Origin: Crossiella equi
Lineage (GTDB): Bacteria; Actinomycetota; Actinomycetes; Mycobacteriales; Pseudonocardiaceae
Assembly (NCBI RefSeq): GCF_017876755.1
Contig: NZ_JAGIOO010000001.1
Location: 6,743,786-6,807,785, forward strand
DNA: 64,000 nucleotides
Direction of reading: 5' to 3'
The notes under the pieces were generated by a model. The model saw nothing but the letters and a program-made list of their open reading frames with translations, was not told the DNA's origin and did not search any database. The translations under genes and the position numbers were made by a program. Shown piece by piece: positions 42,168 through 48,825 of the stretch (positions within the stretch are counted from its first letter, which is position 1; every line of letters starts with the position of its first letter).

Positions 42168-45100
42168 TCAGGCTTCCGCCGCCCCGGCGATGTCCGCGAG
42201 CACCTGCCTCGTGCGGACCTCCCCGGGGCGGTGGCCTGTCCGGAGGTGGCTGGCCAGGGCCGTCTCGGCGTGCGCACGGGCGGCGGTCAGGTTCCCGGCG
42301 GCGAGCTCGATCCCGGCCAGCGCGGTGTGCGCCTGGCCGAGGCGTACGCCGTAGCCCACCTCGGCCGCGATCCCCCGGGCCAGCTCCGCGTGGGTCCGGG
42401 CGAGGGTGACCGCGCCCATGGCCAGGTGCGTGGCGGCCAGGCCGAGCAGCGCGTCGGCCTCGTGCAGGGACAGGCCCGCCTGCCTGGCCAGCGTCAGCGC
42501 CCGGTCGTGCTCCGCGAGTGCGGCCACCAGCTCGCCCCGGGCCCGGAGCACGTCACCGAGGCACCAGTGCGCGAACGACCGCTCCTTGACGTCGACGGCG
42601 GACTCAGCCTCGGCGAGCCCGGTGCGGGCGAGCTCCTCCGCCTGGTCCACCTCGCCCCGGGCCAGGAGCACCCCGGCCATGCCGAGCACGGTGTTGGTGT
42701 CGCCGTAACGGCCCCCGAGGTCGCGGATCGAGGCGAGACCCCGGTCCAGGCAGGCCAGCGCCTCGTCCAGCTCGCCCATGTCCCACAGCACGAAGCCCAG
42801 GTTGTTGTAGAGCACGGCCTCGGAGTTCACCAGCCCGATCCGGCGCGCGATCCCCAGCGCCTCGAGGTAGGCCTCCCGGGAGTCGGCGAGCAAGCCCTGC
42901 ACCCGCAGCGCGATGCCGAGGTTGCCCAACGAGGGCACTCGGCGCAGCTCGTCACCGAGCTCTGCCAGCATCTCCAGGGCCTCCCGGTAGCAGGCGATGC
43001 CGAGCGTGAGCTGCCCGCGCTCGATGTGGTTGATCCCGAGGTTGGACACCACGTTGGCCAGCCGCACCCGGTCCGCGTCTCCCGCCAGCCCGGACCGCGC
43101 GTGCTCCAGGTGCGCGAGCGCCGTGCCGGGCTGGCCGAGGAACCAGTGCAGCACCCCCAGACCGTGGTGCAGCACCGCCTGTCCGTAGCGGTGCCCGCGG
43201 CGTTCGGCGTGGGCCAGGCCGGTGCTCGCGGTGGTGAGCCAGTCGTTGAGCGCCCGGGTGTGTTGGAGGTAGCCGCGCAGGGTGTCCGCCAGGAGCCAGG
43301 CCAGCTCGTCCTCGCCGGTGTCCGCCGCGCGCAGCACGGCCGCGACCAGGTTCGGCCGCTCCGCGTCCAGCCACAGGCGTGCCTCGAGCAGGTCCGCGAA
43401 CTCCGGGGGCCGCGCGTCCGGCGGAACCGGCGGCAGGCTCACCCGCGCCGTCTCGGGGTACAGCAGCGCGGTCGCGCGGTCCAAGCCGTACAGGTGGTGC
43501 CGGGTCCAGCGCAGGAACGCCGAGCGCCGGGATCCTTCGGATTCCTCGCTCTGGCAACGGAACTCCGCGTACAGGTGCAGCAGGTCGTGCAGCTGGAACC
43601 GGCCGTCCTCCTGCCGCTGCACCAGGTTCGCCCCGGCCAGTCCCGCCAGCAGCTCGGCCGCGTGTCCCGGCTCCTCCTCCGCCAGCGCGGCGGCCGAGGC
43701 GGCGGTGAAGTCCGGGCCCGGGACGAGGCCGAGCAGCCGGAACAGGCGCCGCTGTTCCGGGCCGAGCGCTCGGTAGGAGCGGTCGAAGGCCGCCCGCACC
43801 GCCGCGTCCCGGTCGCCGTCGATGGCCAGCGCGGCGAGCCGGTCCCCGGTGCGGATCCGCCGGACCTGCTGTGCCAGATCGGTTCCGGGCAGGTCGGCCA
43901 GGTTCGCCGCGGCGATGCGCAGTGCCAGCGGCAGGTGGGCGCACAGCGTGGCCAGCTCGTCCAGGGCCGCCGGTTCGGCGTCACCGAGGATGCCTGACAG
44001 CAGCACGATCGCGTCCTCGTGCGGCAGCACCGCCAAGGGGACCGAGTCGCCGACGCCGGGCAGTTCGTTGCGGCTGGTGACCAGGGCCGCGCAGCCGGGT
44101 TCGGTGGGCAGCAGCGGCAGGACCTGGTCCGGGCTGGCGGCGTTGTCCAGCAGCAGCAACACCCGCCTGCCGCGCAGCGTGGCGTGCAGGAGCGCGGCCT
44201 GCTGCTCCTGCTCGGCCGGGATCTGGGACGGCGCCACGCCGAGTGCCCGCAGGAAGCGCGCCAGCACGTCGGTCGGGCGCAGCGCCGCCTCGGTGGCGTA
44301 GCCGTGCAGGTTCACGTGCAGCTGGCCGTCCGGGAACGCCGGGCGCAGCCGGTGGCCGACGTGCACCGCGAGCGCGGTCTTGCCCACGCCCGGCGGTCCG
44401 GAGAGCACCACCGACCGCCCCCGCCGCAGCCGGTCGCCCAGCGCCTCGGCCAGGCGGTCCCGGCCGACGAAGTCGCCGATGTCCGGCGGCAGCTGGCACA
44501 CCGGCGTCCAGCCCGGCCGCGGCGCGGGGGCGGCCAGGGCCGGGTCGTTGGTGAGCACCGCGTGGTGCAGCCCGCGCAGCCTCTCGCTCGGCGCCACACC
44601 CAGCTCCTCGCGCAGCACGGCGGTCGCGCGGTGGAAGGCCTCCAGGGCCTCGGCCTGGCGCTGCGAGCGGTACAGGGCGAGCATGAGCTGGCGCCAGAAG
44701 TCCTCGCGCAGCGGGTACTCGGCGGTGGCCTTCCACAGCTCCGGCACCAGCTCCTCGTGCCCGCCCGCGGCCAGCTCGGCGTCCACCCGCAGCACCAGGG
44801 CGTCCAGGCGTTCCCGGTCCAGCGGGTCACCGAAGTCGCGGCGCGGCGCGGTGGCGGTGACGTCGGCCAGCGCGGGCCCCCGCCACAGCTCGAGCGCGGC
44901 GCGCAGCCCGGCCGCCCGCACCACCGGGTCGGCCTGCTCCCGCGCCCGGGCGACCAGGCGGCGGAACCGGTGCGCGTCCACGTCCTCCGGCTCGACCTCC
45001 AGCCGGTACCCACCGTCCACAGTGGCCAGAATCCCGGGCCCGAGCAGGTGCCGCAGCCTGCGCACGTACGTCTGCACGGCCCCGCGCGGCTGTGCGGGCA

Positions 45101-45278
45101 GCTCCTCGTCCTCCCACAGGTACCCGACGAGCTCCTCGGTCTCCACCCGCTGCCCGGCCCGCAGGGCCAGCACCGCGAGCAGGATGCGTTGCTTCGCGGC
45201 GTCGACCGGCGCGGACCGTCCACCGTGGACGATCTCCACCGGTCCCAGCACGTGGAAAACGACGCTGTGACCAGCCAT
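42168..45278 (-). CDS. AfsR/SARP-family transcriptional regulator with NB-ARC and TPR domains
   Basis: 1036 residues. Order: OmpR-type winged helix (about 5-95), bacterial transcriptional activation domain BTAD (about 100-245), NB-ARC ATPase (P-loop GPPGVGKTALAV near 295; DNAAS and TSRNELPG later), then TPR repeats (about 640-1030). This is the large AfsR type that activates antibiotic or global secondary-metabolism genes in response to ATP and signals. No polyketide or NRPS cluster is adjacent; nearby candidates are the nitric oxide synthase gene and the XRE/peptide locus. The leader has a GAAA-capped hairpin just before a strong GGGGGGAAG ribosome site. Confidence 0.94.
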   Translation of the reverse strand: MAGHSVVFHVLGPVEIVHGGRSAPVDAAKQRILLAVLALRAGQRVETEELVGYLWEDEELPAQPRGAVQTYVRRLRHLLGPGILATVDGGYRLEVEPEDVDAHRFRRLVARAREQADPVVRAAGLRAALELWRGPALADVTATAPRRDFGDPLDRERLDALVLRVDAELAAGGHEELVPELWKATAEYPLREDFWRQLMLALYRSQRQAEALEAFHRATAVLREELGVAPSERLRGLHHAVLTNDPALAAPAPRPGWTPVCQLPPDIGDFVGRDRLAEALGDRLRRGRSVVLSGPPGVGKTALAVHVGHRLRPAFPDGQLHVNLHGYATEAALRPTDVLARFLRALGVAPSQIPAEQEQQAALLHATLRGRRVLLLLDNAASPDQVLPLLPTEPGCAALVTSRNELPGVGDSVPLAVLPHEDAIVLLSGILGDAEPAALDELATLCAHLPLALRIAAANLADLPGTDLAQQVRRIRTGDRLAALAIDGDRDAAVRAAFDRSYRALGPEQRRLFRLLGLVPGPDFTAASAAALAEEEPGHAAELLAGLAGANLVQRQEDGRFQLHDLLHLYAEFRCQSEESEGSRRSAFLRWTRHHLYGLDRATALLYPETARVSLPPVPPDARPPEFADLLEARLWLDAERPNLVAAVLRAADTGEDELAWLLADTLRGYLQHTRALNDWLTTASTGLAHAERRGHRYGQAVLHHGLGVLHWFLGQPGTALAHLEHARSGLAGDADRVRLANVVSNLGINHIERGQLTLGIACYREALEMLAELGDELRRVPSLGNLGIALRVQGLLADSREAYLEALGIARRIGLVNSEAVLYNNLGFVLWDMGELDEALACLDRGLASIRDLGGRYGDTNTVLGMAGVLLARGEVDQAEELARTGLAEAESAVDVKERSFAHWCLGDVLRARGELVAALAEHDRALTLARQAGLSLHEADALLGLAATHLAMGAVTLARTHAELARGIAAEVGYGVRLGQAHTALAGIELAAGNLTAARAHAETALASHLRTGHRPGEVRTRQVLADIAGAAEA

Positions 45279-45561: not shown

Positions 45562-46905
45562 TCAGCCGCTGAGCCTGCGCCGGAACGCGGCGAACAGTCC
45601 CCGCCGGGCCGCCTCGGCGACCTCCGGGGCCGAGGGGAAGCGGTGCGGGGTGCCGTGCTGGCCGCGCTGCGCCGCGTCCGGGTCGAGCACGAACTCCGGG
45701 CGCAGGTGCTGGGTCTCGTAGTAGCGGTGGAAGACCGGGGTGAGCGAGCCCGACATCGGGGGCACGATCCAGCTCCAGTCGGCCGGGCACTGGCGGCCCG
45801 CCTTCTCCTCCTTGGCGATGTGGGTGAGGAAGCGCTCGGCCTCGGTGTGGTGGTCGGTGATGGTGACCCCGGCGGAGTGGTAGGAGTGCAGCACCGCGCG
45901 GTTGATCTCCACCAGGGCCCGGTCCCGCCAGAGGGTGGCCTCCGAGCTGGTGTCCAGGCCCAGGCGCTCGCCGATCTCGGGGAGCATGTCGTAGCGGTCG
46001 GCGTCGGCCAGGTTGCGCGCGCCGATCTCGGTGCCCATGTACCAGCCGTTGAACGGCGCGGCCGGGTAGGAGACGCCGCCGATGGACAGGCGCATGTTGC
46101 TGATCGCGGGCACGGCGTGCCAGCGCAGGCTCAGGTCGGTGAACCACGGCAGGTCGGGGTGCTCCAGGGGCACCTCCATGACCACGTCGCGGGGCACCGG
46201 GAACAGCCGGACGCCCTCGTGCGCGGTCTCGACGGCCAGGGGGAGCAGGTCGAACGGGCTGCGCAGGGTGGGTGGCCGCCACCCCAGCTCGGTGACCGCC
46301 TCGGTGAACCCGGCGTAGCGGGGGTCGCCGAGGACGTGGCCGAACGCGTCGCGGTACCCGGCGTACCGGACGAGCTGCTCGTTCCAGATGGAGGGGCCCG
46401 GGCGGTCGGGGGCGTCCGGGGCGAAGACGGTCATCACCGGGCGGACCCGGCCCGCGTTGGTGGCCAGGCGCAGGTGCTCCACGCACTCGGCGGCCACGTC
46501 GGCGGCGTTGGTCAGGTGCCGCAGATCGCGGACGGTCAGGCTGCGCCAGTACAGGCGCCCGATGCACCGGGCGCTGTTGCGCCAGGCCACGCGGGCCCCG
46601 AAGGTCAGCTCGTCGGGGGTGTGCAGGTAGGTGCCGCGCAAGGCGATCTCGGCACGGACGGCGGCCAGCCGTGGCTCCACCGGCCCCGCCTGAGGGTTCT
46701 CGGCGTGGAAGAGGCGGAGGAACTCCTCGGCCTCGTCGACGTCGACACCCTCGCCATGGGCGGTACGCGCCGGGCCCGCACCCTGAAGCGCCCCGTGGTC
46801 CACGGGGCAGCCCGCCAGGGGGGCGACCGGTCGCTCGCTGAGGGTAGTCACGGCGGGGAAACTTAACCCCGCAAACATGTCACCGGTGACCGCCATCCGG
46901 GCCAC
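45562..46905 (-). CDS. nos: Bacterial nitric oxide synthase (oxygenase domain)
   Basis: About 447 residues, an oxygenase-only NOS that turns arginine into citrulline and nitric oxide using external reductases. The heme-thiolate cysteine is in WRNSARCIGRLYW (about C114), and the substrate/pterin region LPWFTDLSLRWHAVPAISNM and PFNGWYMGTEIGARNLAD is intact. There is no reductase domain. The start is uncertain: GTG 46905, ATG 46896 and ATG 46878 are all possible and none has a clear ribosome site. In streptomycetes NOS serves pathway nitration (thaxtomin, with P450 TxtE) or signalling; no NRPS is nearby here. It lies downstream of the peptide-precursor gene, beyond its terminator. Confidence 0.94.
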   Translation of the reverse strand: MARMAVTGDMFAGLSFPAVTTLSERPVAPLAGCPVDHGALQGAGPARTAHGEGVDVDEAEEFLRLFHAENPQAGPVEPRLAAVRAEIALRGTYLHTPDELTFGARVAWRNSARCIGRLYWRSLTVRDLRHLTNAADVAAECVEHLRLATNAGRVRPVMTVFAPDAPDRPGPSIWNEQLVRYAGYRDAFGHVLGDPRYAGFTEAVTELGWRPPTLRSPFDLLPLAVETAHEGVRLFPVPRDVVMEVPLEHPDLPWFTDLSLRWHAVPAISNMRLSIGGVSYPAAPFNGWYMGTEIGARNLADADRYDMLPEIGERLGLDTSSEATLWRDRALVEINRAVLHSYHSAGVTITDHHTEAERFLTHIAKEEKAGRQCPADWSWIVPPMSGSLTPVFHRYYETQHLRPEFVLDPDAAQRGQHGTPHRFPSAPEVAEAARRGLFAAFRRRLSG

Positions 46906-47020: not shown

Positions 47021-47067
47021 ACGAGGAACGGGTTGTCTCGCCGCCGCCGAGACAACCCGTTCCTCGT
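47021..47067. terminator. Perfect 20-bp hairpin after the peptide-precursor gene
   Basis: Left arm ACGAGGAACGGGTTGTCTCG (47021-47040) pairs with its exact complement at 47048-47067; the loop is 7 nt. It lies 36 bp after the stop of the minus-strand peptide gene and upstream of nos, so it should separate the two transcripts. Confidence 0.75.
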
Positions 47068-47103
47068 CTGATGCCACCGTTCAGGCAGAACCCGACCTCG
47101 CGG

Positions 47104-47460
47104 TCAGGGGTAGATCACGTCGTCCGTGCTGCCGCCGTCGCCCGGCTTCGTCGGGTACACCGCGTCCGCGGGGAGCGCGTGGATGACGGTCGTCGGCTTC
47201 GTCGGGTACACGACGTCGTCGAGCAGCGGGTAGACCACGTCCGTGTCCGTGGGTCGGAAGCTCGTCGGGTAGGTCACGTCGTTGACACTGTCGGCGGGCT
47301 TCTTCGGCTCGGGGTAGACAACGTCAGCAGGCGACGGCTGGGACGCGGACACGACGTGCTGCGGCTGCTCAAGCGACAGTTGGATATCGGTGGATTGAGC
47401 GGAGCTGTCAGCAAGTGGAACAATTCCCGCGTAAAGTGTCATCAGAAGGGCAACGTACAT
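47104..47460 (-). CDS. Exported repeat protein with six D-x-x-Y-P motifs, candidate signal-peptide precursor
   Basis: 118 residues from the ATG at 47460, chosen because GGAGG lies 5 nt upstream; an ATG four codons earlier lacks a ribosome site. A hydrophobic N-terminus (YVALLMTLYAGIVPLADSSAQS) looks like a Sec signal, though without positive charges. The rest contains six copies of D-[VA]-[VTI]-Y-P at about residues 46-50, 61-65, 74-78, 82-86, 99-103 and 114-118; the last ends the protein. Two copies are followed by TKP and share 17-bp DNA repeats. The linkers vary in length and are rich in Pro, Thr and Asp. No family recognised. It is back-to-back with an XRE-TPR regulator, which suggests a peptide pheromone precursor; this is inference. 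Confidence 0.75.
   Translation of the reverse strand: MYVALLMTLYAGIVPLADSSAQSTDIQLSLEQPQHVVSASQPSPADVVYPEPKKPADSVNDVTYPTSFRPTDTDVVYPLLDDVVYPTKPTTVIHALPADAVYPTKPGDGGSTDDVIYP
47144..47211. repeat. 17-bp direct repeats inside the peptide-precursor gene
   Basis: GGCTTCGTCGGGTACAC at 47144-47160 and again at 47195-47211, 51 bp (17 codons) apart. They encode the two VYPTKP segments and show internal duplication. Confidence 0.8.
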
Positions 47461-47487
47461 GCCTGCCTCCATGGGTAGCTATCTGTC

Positions 47488-48825
47488 ATGAGTTCTGCCG
47501 AACGTGTCAGCACCGAACGTGAGCACATGGCTACGTTCGGCGAGAAGCTTCGTGCGCTGCGGACGGCCCGTGGACTCACCCAGCGTGATCTTGCAGGTGA
47601 AGGCCTGTCGAGCAGTTACTTGTCCAGACTTGAGTCGGGGCAGCGGATGCCGACGGCCAAGGTCATGGAACAGCTGGCGGCGCGCCTCGGCGTGTCGTCC
47701 GACTCCTTCGCCGGGCTCGGCAACAGCAACGGCCGTGCCACCAGCGGGGTGGTGCTCGCCGGGGCCGCCCGCGTGGTCGACCACATGCTCGCCGGCCGCA
47801 CGGCCGCCGCTCTCGGGTTGCTCGACGACATCCGTGTCAACCTGAGGGACCCGGACGCGCGCTGGCTCGCCGAGTACGCGGCCGCCGCGTGTGCGAGCAG
47901 GCTCGGTCGCACCAACGAGGTCTTCGAGCGACTTTCGAGCCTTGACACCATGTACCGGGGTCTGCCGGTCGCGGCGCGGGTGCTGACCTCGACCATGCAC
48001 GCCGGCGCGGCCCGGGAGCTGGGCCGGGTCCGCGATGCGGTCGAACTCGGGGAACGGGCCGTGATGGAGGCCGACGGCATGGCCACCGCTTCGGACTTCC
48101 CGGTCGGCCAGGCGCTGCTGCTCCGCGTGCGCGCGCGGACGACGCTCGCCGCCGCGCTCGCCGAAGCCGGTCGCACGGCCGAGGTGTTCGCGACCTGTGA
48201 GCAGGCCATCGCGCTCGCGGAGGCCTACCCGGAGACCGAGGACCACGACAGCACTCCCGACCCGCTCGCCGACGAGCTGGCGGTGGTGAGCCACTGGATG
48301 TACGCGATCGCGCTCGCGCGGAGCGGCAACCTCGAGTCCGCGGGCCGGCACCTCGGTGAGGCCCACCAGCGCAGCGCCGACGCGATCGGTGTGGAGCTGT
48401 GGTGCCGGGTGCGCGTGGCCGCCGTGTCCTTGTTCCTGGAGACCGGCGCGACCACGGTCGAGGCGCCGGAGGTCCTGCTCAACCAGGTCTCGGACGTGCG
48501 GCACGCGGGCCGGGGCCAGCTCGACGCCCAGGTCTTCATGCTCCGGGCGGAGCTGGCGCTGCGGAAGGACGACGCGCGCGGCGCGCTCGACAGCGCTCAG
48601 GCCGCGCTGGACTCGGGGGTCCTGGGCTCGGCGGACCGGATCCGCACGCTCATGACGGTGGTCAAGGTCAGCACGGACCTGGGGCTGGAAGACCGGCGCC
48701 TGAACGCGCTCGAGGAGCTGCTGCAGCGGGTGGAGACCGCGGACGCCGATGAGGTCCGTCCCGCGCTGCTGAAGGAGGTCGCCGCGCTGTCCGTGCGGAC
48801 CCTGCGCAACCACGGTCGCGTCTGA
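47488..48825 (+). CDS. XRE-family regulator with TPR-like sensor domain (RRNPP-like)
   Basis: 445 residues. An N-terminal XRE helix-turn-helix (about residues 15-65: FGEKLRALRTARGLTQRDLA ... SSSYLSRLESGQRMPTAKV) is followed by about 370 residues of helical TPR-like repeats (A/L-rich pairs such as AAALGLLDDIRVNLRDPDARWLAEYAAA). In Firmicutes this architecture (PlcR, Rgg, NprR) binds short secreted peptides. Starts at ATG 47488 and ATG 47527 are both possible; neither has a good ribosome site. Only 27 bp separate the first from the divergent peptide-precursor start, so one control region serves both. Three CGAACGT boxes lie at its 5' end, suggesting autoregulation. Confidence 0.85.
   Translation: MSSAERVSTEREHMATFGEKLRALRTARGLTQRDLAGEGLSSSYLSRLESGQRMPTAKVMEQLAARLGVSSDSFAGLGNSNGRATSGVVLAGAARVVDHMLAGRTAAALGLLDDIRVNLRDPDARWLAEYAAAACASRLGRTNEVFERLSSLDTMYRGLPVAARVLTSTMHAGAARELGRVRDAVELGERAVMEADGMATASDFPVGQALLLRVRARTTLAAALAEAGRTAEVFATCEQAIALAEAYPETEDHDSTPDPLADELAVVSHWMYAIALARSGNLESAGRHLGEAHQRSADAIGVELWCRVRVAAVSLFLETGATTVEAPEVLLNQVSDVRHAGRGQLDAQVFMLRAELALRKDDARGALDSAQAALDSGVLGSADRIRTLMTVVKVSTDLGLEDRRLNALEELLQRVETADADEVRPALLKEVAALSVRTLRNHGRV
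47497..47541. promoter_or_regulatory. Three CCGAACGT boxes at the peptide/regulator locus
   Basis: CCGAACGTG occurs at 47498-47506 and 47513-47521 (15 bp apart), and its inverted form ACGTTCGGC at 47533-47541. They sit around the two possible starts of the XRE regulator gene, so they are candidate binding sites for that regulator; the third lies in coding sequence. Confidence 0.45.

What the first reader, a model, noticed from the sequence alone, without database searches (positions are those of the whole stretch)
47104..48825. Back-to-back XRE-TPR regulator and exported D-x-x-Y-P repeat protein: candidate actinobacterial peptide quorum-sensing pair
The sequence shows a 118-residue exported protein with six D-[VA]-[VTI]-Y-P motifs, the last at the extreme C-terminus, and a divergent regulator made of an XRE helix-turn-helix plus about 370 residues of TPR-like helices, with 27-66 bp between starts. 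In Firmicutes, RRNPP regulators (PlcR, Rgg, NprR) pair with adjacent small pro-peptide genes and bind the processed peptide. A precursor with several internal copies of a possible pentapeptide core would be unusual for that family and new to me in actinomycetes. The mature peptide, its protease and its importer are unknown; no Opp genes are in view.
Basis: partly seen in the sequence, partly recalled or inferred. Interest (0 to 1): 0.85.

Follow-up and report, generated by a model that had tools for sequence, protein, structure and literature searches.

The report
Actinobacterial peptide pheromone and receptor pair
Next to a DNA-binding receptor gene, this soil bacterium carries a small gene that encodes the same five-residue peptide several times over; related bacteria keep the gene pair but spell the peptide differently, which looks like a private chemical language of a kind so far described mainly in Bacillus-like bacteria.

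Summary
In detail: a 118-aa ORF (47104-47460, minus) with six D-[VA]-[VTI]-Y-P copies, the last at the C-terminus, 27 bp from a divergent XRE-TPR regulator (47488-48825). The pair occurs in all 5 Crossiella and all 3 Allokutzneria genomes held, with lineage-specific cores: DVVYP, DITNP, DIGHP, DLTHP, GVEWP. Core copies within Crossiella genes differ mostly at synonymous sites (pS 0.28-0.83, pN 0-0.11). Two sister species are 95-100% identical in nearly all flanking windows, but an island over the repeats and most of the receptor drops to 46-87%, as in pherotype switching. Of 21 full-length regulator homologues elsewhere in the family, 20 have a small secreted-looking ORF close by, one with five GIEWPD copies. 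Streptomycetaceae plasmids carry 1-6 copies of DIGWP, IDWP or DVEWP beside related regulators. Best reading: an RRNPP-like propeptide and cytosolic receptor, part of a wider actinobacterial family. In weaker XRE-TPR groups a propeptide was often not found.

The parts
47104..47460 (-). Candidate propeptide gene, 118 aa, six D-[VA]-[VTI]-Y-P copies, last copy ends the protein
   Evidence: orthologues; purifying selection between G003 and G004 (tail pS 0.094, pN 0.013)
47466..47470 (-). Shine-Dalgarno-like GGAGG, 5 nt before ATG 47460
   Evidence: Sequence; columns invariant in 8 loci
47311..47325 (-). core 1 DVVYP
47266..47280 (-). core 2 DVTYP
47227..47241 (-). core 3 DVVYP
47203..47217 (-). 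core 4 DVVYP
47152..47166 (-). core 5 DAVYP
47107..47121 (-). core 6 DVIYP, extreme C-terminus
47383..47460 (-). Hydrophobic N-terminal coding stretch whose DNA is also conserved (low pS, GC3 0.50 against 0.91 in the rest of the gene): probably overlaps regulatory DNA (inference)
47488..48825 (+). XRE helix-turn-helix plus TPR-like regulator, proposed cytosolic peptide receptor (445 aa)
   Evidence: Pfam HTH_3/HTH_31; TPR models in homologues; profile-profile match to a second actinobacterial XRE-TPR group, E 1.1e-25 over 359 columns, HTH included
47060..48650 (.). Approximate extent, projected onto the window, of the G001/G002 divergence island (repeats plus most of the regulator)
   Evidence: 150-bp windows: island 46-87%, lowest over the repeats; flanks 95-100% except one gapped window at 86.7%; pS 0.064 in NOS against 0.55-0.63 in regulator HTH and TPR
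45562..46905 (-). Neighbour: nitric-oxide synthase oxygenase domain gene, next to the pair in all 5 Crossiella genomes but not in the 3 Allokutzneria loci; possible target, not part of the pair
   Evidence: Pfam PF02898 E 4.6e-151

Best explanation
A two-gene peptide-signalling module that works like RRNPP systems. The small gene makes a propeptide that leaves the cell and is cut into short peptides with the core D-[V/I/L]-x-[Y/H/N]-P, several per precursor. At high concentration the peptide returns through an oligopeptide permease and binds the TPR domain of the divergently encoded XRE regulator. That changes its DNA binding at the shared promoter region and probably at other targets. Each lineage uses its own core, and core and receptor are exchanged together as an allele. 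Shown: the gene pair, its conservation, the repeated core under purifying selection, lineage-specific cores, the co-localised divergence island, and similar pairs with related cores in other actinobacteria. Inferred: secretion route, processing, import, binding and regulated genes.
For: (1) Divergent adjacency in 8 of 8 loci; the regulator profile finds 8 of 297 family genomes, the small-protein profile the same 8 plus one weak hit. (2) Core copies within Crossiella genes differ mainly at synonymous sites. (3) G001/G002 island: NOS pS 0.064, regulator HTH pS 0.63, TPR 0.55, repeat part 0.47. G003/G004, which share DLTHP, have no island. The G002 receptor is closer to G003 than to its sister G001 (TPR 75.1% against 55.0%; clade support 1.0), and both carry His at core position 4. 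(4) Of 21 full-length distant homologues in the family, 20 have a secreted-looking small ORF close by: 15 of 15 in genus g8 (F-x-P-P-Y), g22 (FTPPY), g17 (two IDWP), g11 (five GIEWPD), g2 twice (GIEWPDP, about 1.1 kb away). (5) DIGHP of G002 against DIGWP of Streptomyces/Kitasatospora, and GVEWP of Allokutzneria against GIEWP of g2/g11, differ by one residue. (6) Peptide-first search: 5 of 8 plasmid records hit (one is the query's own record) have an XRE-TPR gene within 500 bp.
Against: No binding, peptide or expression data. The Crossiella/Allokutzneria N-terminus lacks K/R and is unusually conserved for a signal peptide; part of that conservation is DNA-level. No convincing sequence match of the TPR part to RRNPPA receptors (HTH matches to PlcR/ComR; one RapH match at E 0.34). 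In the weaker XRE-TPR groups a propeptide was often not found: 15 of 20 loci, 6 of 16 plasmid loci, and 15 of 30 f18 loci with neither an I-x-W-P-type nor a CC-ending candidate. Those loci are not phylogenetically independent. The island rests on one pair of sister species.
Confidence: 0.82

Rival explanations
1. The small gene is a precursor of a secreted antimicrobial or natural product (RiPP-like, several cores) and the XRE-TPR protein is only its ordinary regulator.
For: Repeated cores and a variable core with a conserved leader also occur in RiPP precursors (recalled). Several plasmid homologues lie in biosynthetic neighbourhoods: acyl carrier protein, NRPS, ATP-grasp, a PqqD-family gene.
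Against: No modification enzyme recurs beside the pair in what I read: NOS in Crossiella, a VTT-domain (DedA-type) gene in Allokutzneria, a bacterial PH-domain gene and an Exo_endo_phos gene at L074. This covers near neighbours only. Most relatives found have a signal-like N-terminus. The receptor diverges together with the core.
Confidence: 0.1
2. The repeat protein is a structural or surface protein with a degenerate proline motif, next to an unrelated XRE regulator by stable synteny.
For: The pair has stable synteny in Crossiella; the N-terminus could be a membrane anchor; no classical signal charge.
Against: Closeness is kept in genera where other neighbours differ and where the ORF is divergent, in the same direction, or convergent. 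Several single-copy versions end exactly at the core. The core changes in step with the receptor.
Confidence: 0.05
3. The peptide acts inside the producing cell without export, as a ligand of the TPR regulator (a toxin-antitoxin-like or autoregulatory pair).
For: No K/R in the Crossiella N-terminus. Some loci have short frames without a signal that end in or near the core (L131, L150, L151, L156, L163).
Against: Many relatives have clear signal-peptide-like N-termini by a simple rule. Several copies of a pentapeptide make most sense with proteolytic release.
Confidence: 0.08

Closest known systems
RRNPP / RRNPPA quorum sensing of Bacillota (PlcR-PapR, NprR-NprX, Rap-Phr, AimR-AimP)
   Same: HTH plus TPR receptor of 250-500 aa next to a small propeptide gene; mature peptide usually at the C-terminus; propeptides with up to six copies are known (PMC9765709, section 7 read, and passages; PMC11343458 passages; criteria in PMC10075063 passages).
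   Different: Actinobacteria. TPR region without a convincing sequence match to RRNPPA. Core D-[VIL]-x-[YHN]-P here, [DGN]-[IVL]-x-W-P in relatives. Small proteins of 93-133 aa in Crossiella/Allokutzneria; PMC10075063 set 10-100 aa for candidate propeptides (passage).
NsdA-family TPR-like regulators of Streptomyces (NCBIfam NF053720)
   Same: HTH-TPR regulator of actinobacteria; weak match to one related regulator (L128, E 0.0032, 17 bits against a cut-off of 75).
   Different: The window regulator has no NsdA match at E<=1. I recall no peptide partner for NsdA.
Pherotype loci such as agr and ComQXPA (recalled, no call)
   Same: Signal and receptor genes diverge together in an island between near-identical flanks.
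   Different: Those receptors are membrane histidine kinases; here the receptor would be cytosolic.

Membership tests
RRNPP/RRNPPA | Receptor of about 250-500 aa with N-terminal HTH (absent in Rap) and a C-terminal TPR superhelix | tested here: met
   445 aa; HTH E 9.1e-13; TPR models match homologues at up to 1.6e-9. The window protein's own best TPR E is about 0.06. Sequence level only; the fold was not modelled.
RRNPP/RRNPPA | Adjacent gene for a small propeptide | tested here: met
   8 of 8 Crossiella/Allokutzneria loci. Of 21 distant full-length homologues in the family 20 have a candidate close by; at L074 one gene lies between, L076 has the same spacing.
RRNPP/RRNPPA | Propeptide exported (Sec signal peptide or PptAB) | tested here: inconclusive
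   Crossiella/Allokutzneria: hydrophobic N-terminus without K/R. Relatives: signal-like N-termini by a simple rule, not by SignalP.
RRNPP/RRNPPA | Mature peptide at the C-terminus, sometimes in several copies | tested here: met
   Core ends the protein in 5 of 5 Crossiella genes; two residues follow the last core in 3 of 3 Allokutzneria genes. Maturation itself not shown.
RRNPP/RRNPPA | Sequence homology of the receptor's TPR part to RRNPPA | tested here: not met
   No RNPP-type model among the Pfam and NCBIfam matches. PDB matches to PlcR and ComR are confined to the HTH; chains I recall as Rgg (5w4m, 4yv6) reach residue 106-111; RapH 3q15 at E 0.34 only.
RRNPP/RRNPPA | Peptide import by an oligopeptide permease and binding in the TPR groove | not testable with these tools
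   12 PF00496 matches in the genome show only that importers could exist
RiPP precursor | Conserved modification enzyme next to the precursor | tested here: not met
   Near neighbours differ between genera; no systematic survey of neighbours was made

The most novel reading that the evidence does not exclude
Actinobacteria have their own widespread class of RRNPP-like peptide communication, independent in sequence from that of Bacillota. XRE-TPR receptors are paired with secreted propeptides carrying 1-6 copies of a [D/G/N]-[I/V/L]-x-[W/Y/H/N]-P pheromone, on chromosomes and giant linear plasmids and often beside biosynthetic genes. Species-specific pherotypes are swapped as receptor-ligand cassettes. 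The Crossiella locus is a divergent branch.
Probability: 0.68. Interest if true: 0.95.

Novelty: new variant of a known kind. Interest (0 to 1): 0.88.

Why it matters
In the papers seen here, actinobacterial signalling is told mainly through gamma-butyrolactones; [quoted passage not shown] Such a code would give short, synthesizable signals to test at once, some of them beside biosynthetic genes, and might wake silent antibiotic clusters. The repeated cores and the receptor-ligand island also give a natural series for studying how specificity evolves.

Tried and rejected
Sigma-70 promoter and terminator scan of the intergenic region: nothing. Pfam and NCBIfam for ten small proteins in all: no meaningful family. 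PDB sequence search: RRNPP entries match mainly through the HTH. Phages: no match to the L128 regulator or to the L155 repeat protein. Plasmids: no match to the L074 regulator or to the L128 small protein. Phylum-wide profile of the TPR region (7 regulators of the two genera): only the window's own genome of 396, at E<=1e-6. Own genome: no second full-length copy of the regulator. Low-scoring small-protein hits beyond the orthologues (25 places, two of them in Crossiella genomes; one; five) were judged chance and dropped. I looked again at one, L062 (E 3.2e-4): its frame lies within long reading frames with no XRE gene in view; the others were not examined singly. Considered and set aside: RiPP precursor, surface repeat protein, intracellular ligand (see rivals).

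The test loop used a faulty pattern (0 of 0) and the regulator finder missed many loci; neither count is used, only the controls. In one search the anchored test gave a divergent secreted-looking ORF in 29 of 75 loci and a same-strand one in 9 of 75. Of the 29, 15 are one genus and at least two (L121, L130) look spurious; of the 9 same-strand loci four (L081, L086, L100, L114) look spurious, and one place is counted twice (L118, L127). In one search the raw count is 23 of 90 test loci against 1 of 46 control stretches (Fisher p 2.6e-4). Three of the 23 (L132, L140, L152) look spurious, the filter misses several true cases, and the loci are not independent.

Full report
Observation. The window lies in a 9.44-Mb genome. 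The ORF, its six D-[VA]-[VTI]-Y-P copies, the C-terminal position of the last copy, and the divergent 445-aa XRE-TPR regulator are all as described. The best start of the small gene is ATG 47460 with GGAGG five bases before it. The repeat is not compositional: shuffles of the tail reach at most 3 copies in 1500 trials, against 6 observed.

Conservation of the pair. With a profile of the regulator's TPR part, 8 of 297 family genomes match at E<=1e-20. With a profile of the small protein, 9 of 297 match at E<=0.01: the same 8 plus one weak hit (G247, E 0.0036, in a 420-aa frame) that I dropped. In all 8 the two genes are adjacent and divergent. All 5 Crossiella and all 3 Allokutzneria genomes held have the small gene. 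The N-terminus M-[FYL]-V-A-[LF]-LMTLYAGI is nearly fixed. The repeats are not: six DVVYP-type in the window, six DITNP in G001, five DIGHP-type in G002, four DLTHP in G003 and G004, GVEWP/GIEWP/DVAWP-type in Allokutzneria. In Crossiella the core ends the protein; in Allokutzneria two residues follow.

Selection on the core. Between copies within one gene, pS is 0.28-0.83 and pN 0-0.11 in Crossiella; Allokutzneria copies are looser (pS 0.26-0.52, pN 0.14-0.33). The copies were picked by a pattern, which lowers pN somewhat, but G001, G003 and G004 copies are identical in protein while differing in codons. In the window, G002, G003 and G004 the synonymous distance (0.44-0.83) says that the copies are old and held alike by selection; in G001 (0.28) some may be more recent. 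Between G003 and G004 the tail shows pS 0.094 and pN 0.013, so the ORF behaves as a real gene.

Island. G001 and G002 are sister species (NOS pS 0.064). Outside the pair their 150-bp windows are 95-100% identical, apart from one end window at 86.7% with 16 gaps. Over roughly 1.6 kb that hold the repeats, the regulator's HTH and most of its TPR part, identity falls to 46-87%: 46-66% over the repeats, a local peak of 87% at the shared N-terminal stretch, then 55-79% through the regulator. Synonymous divergence is high there too (HTH 0.63, TPR 0.55), so this is best read as an old allele brought in by recombination, not only fast protein change. G003 and G004, which share DLTHP, show no such island (90-100%). 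G002's receptor groups with G003/G004 (support 1.0) against the relationship shown by NOS (G001-G002 pS 0.064, G002-G003 0.20), and these three share His at core position 4. This is what a swapped receptor-ligand cassette predicts. It rests on one pair of sister species.

Overlapping DNA signal. The first 25 codons of the small gene have low synonymous divergence (pS 0-0.16 in seven Crossiella pairs, against 0.41-0.63 in the regulator HTH of the six divergent ones) and GC3 of 0.50-0.58 against 0.75-0.91 for the rest. The regulator's promoter or an operator probably overlaps them. So N-terminal protein conservation should not be over-read. The N-terminus has no K/R; export through Sec is plausible but unproven.

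Wider family. A full-length regulator profile matches 83 of 249 family genomes at E<=1e-9, most of them through the HTH alone. I examined all 21 full-length matches outside the two genera (L074-L094). In 15 of 15 loci of genus g8 there is a divergent 43-52-aa ORF with a signal-peptide-like start and a C-terminal F-x-P-P-Y segment. L079 has FTPPYQAN and L078 two IDWP copies, both divergent. L075 has five copies of GIEWPD[SP] about 0.4 kb downstream, convergent. L074 and L076 have one GIEWPDP about 1.1 kb downstream; at L074 an Exo_endo_phos gene lies between. L077 has none. From the weaker matches I read 20 loci (of about 80 further rows, picked by frame length): 5 of 20 have a small ORF with D-W-P-W (L098, L100 divergent; L101, L104, L105 same strand upstream); in 15 none was seen. 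Outside the family: L117 (another family of the class) carries three IGNWPDPM copies, the last at the C-terminus; L116 ends GNWPFFDD; these come from 3 matching genomes of 149, the third being L118. In family f18, 69 of 101 genomes match the A10 profile at E<=1e-10. Of the 30 loci given, 6 have a secreted-looking ORF with SIEWP, MIDWP, LIDWP, DIDWP, EIGWP or two DIGWP (L127 = L118, L120, L121, L128, L125, L124), 7 have one of another type ending in CC, and two more (L131, L132) have only frames ending in the core.

Named relatives. A related regulator (L128) finds 37 plasmid records, of Streptomyces 35, Kitasatospora 1, Embleya 1. I read 16 of these 37 regulator loci. Six have a signal-like ORF with the core: Streptomyces NBC_01006 three DIGWP, Kitasatospora NBC_01266 six [DNG]IGWP, S. 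parvus two DVEWP, NBC_01178 DVEWP and EVEWP, ITFR-6 one NIGWP (and one NIGWS), NBC_00158 three IDWP. Four have only a short frame ending in or near the core without a signal (L150, L151, L156, L163); six have none that I count (L152, L153, L157, L159, L164, L167). Starting instead from the NBC_01006 peptide, 8 records match, the first being its own. In 5 of 8 an XRE-TPR gene lies within 500 bp (coordinates; three of them read; three of the five, NBC_00304, NBC_01259 and NBC_00342, look like one plasmid type). In one it is about 6 kb away, and in two weak hits (E 0.4 and 0.8) 12 and 19 kb.

Controls. A secreted-looking ORF occurs in 99 of 4000 random 500-nt one-strand stretches and on the divergent side of 3 of 109 long ORFs, against 29 of 75 XRE loci on the divergent side with nearly the same rule (15 of the 29 are g8 and at least two look spurious). 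The core pattern in a secreted-looking ORF occurs in 1 of 46 control stretches and 23 of 90 test loci, three of the latter spurious.

Receptor relationships. The Crossiella/Allokutzneria profile aligns with the profile of a second XRE-TPR group (g67, g21 and g24) over 359 columns, HTH included (hhalign 99.7%, E 1.1e-25). A tree of 77 regulators places the DVVYP/GVEWP group beside the GIEWP/IDWP/FTPPY group (0.88) and gathers the I-x-W-P systems of f18 and the plasmids in one clade (0.99), with loci lacking a found peptide scattered among them (FastTree, midpoint root, modest support at depth). Against the PDB it is the HTH that resembles PlcR and ComR; matches to RapH and to chains I recall as Rgg are marginal in the TPR part. 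So it works like RRNPP but membership by descent is not shown.

Literature. Multi-copy propeptides in RRNPPA: PMC9765709 (section 7 read; passages), PMC11343458 (passages). PMC10075063 (passages) says that signals in Actinomycetota typically are small molecules, and its workflow was illustrated on Firmicutes and viruses. [quoted passage not shown] PMC13220807 and PMC13419125 were seen in passages. Ten full-text searches gave no listing of such a system in actinobacteria; other papers were seen as listings only, some listings were capped, and most subscription papers and all preprints are outside that library.

Verdict. The pair is real, repeated across lineages and evolves as a ligand and receptor should. 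A peptide signalling system is the most likely function (0.82). What it regulates is unknown; the neighbouring NOS gene is a candidate only in Crossiella.

Noticed in passing
L133, L134, L136, L138, L139, L146, L147 (family f18): A second class of small secreted-looking ORF near XRE-TPR regulators, ending in GCC, SCC or ACC: divergent in L134, L136, L138, L146, L147; L133 and L139 end DFPACC. Possibly another peptide signal.
   Followed up: partly
L131, L151, L156, L163: Short frames without a signal peptide that end in or near the same core (NVDWP, DIGWPKR, ELDWP, DIDWP) near XRE-TPR genes, reminiscent of leaderless communication peptides.
   Followed up: no
L152, L154, L156, L158, L159, L160, L162, L165, L168: On Streptomyces plasmids (mostly linear) these regulators lie near acyl carrier protein, metK, class V aminotransferase, SARP or ATP-grasp genes, which suggests control of biosynthesis.
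   Followed up: no
window 47383-47460: Near-invariant DNA across two genera inside the first 26 codons of the small gene, including GGAACAATTCCCGCGTAAAGTGTC on the plus strand in Crossiella; possible promoter or operator of the divergent regulator.
   Followed up: partly
window 45562-46905: Nitric-oxide synthase oxygenase gene next to the pair in all five Crossiella genomes; in the three Allokutzneria loci a VTT-domain (DedA-type) gene takes the place beside the small gene.
   Followed up: partly
window 42168-45278: AfsR/SARP-type regulator of 1036 aa, next to the NOS gene (NF053617 E 3.9e-132, 442 bits, below that family's cut-off of 1430).
   Followed up: no
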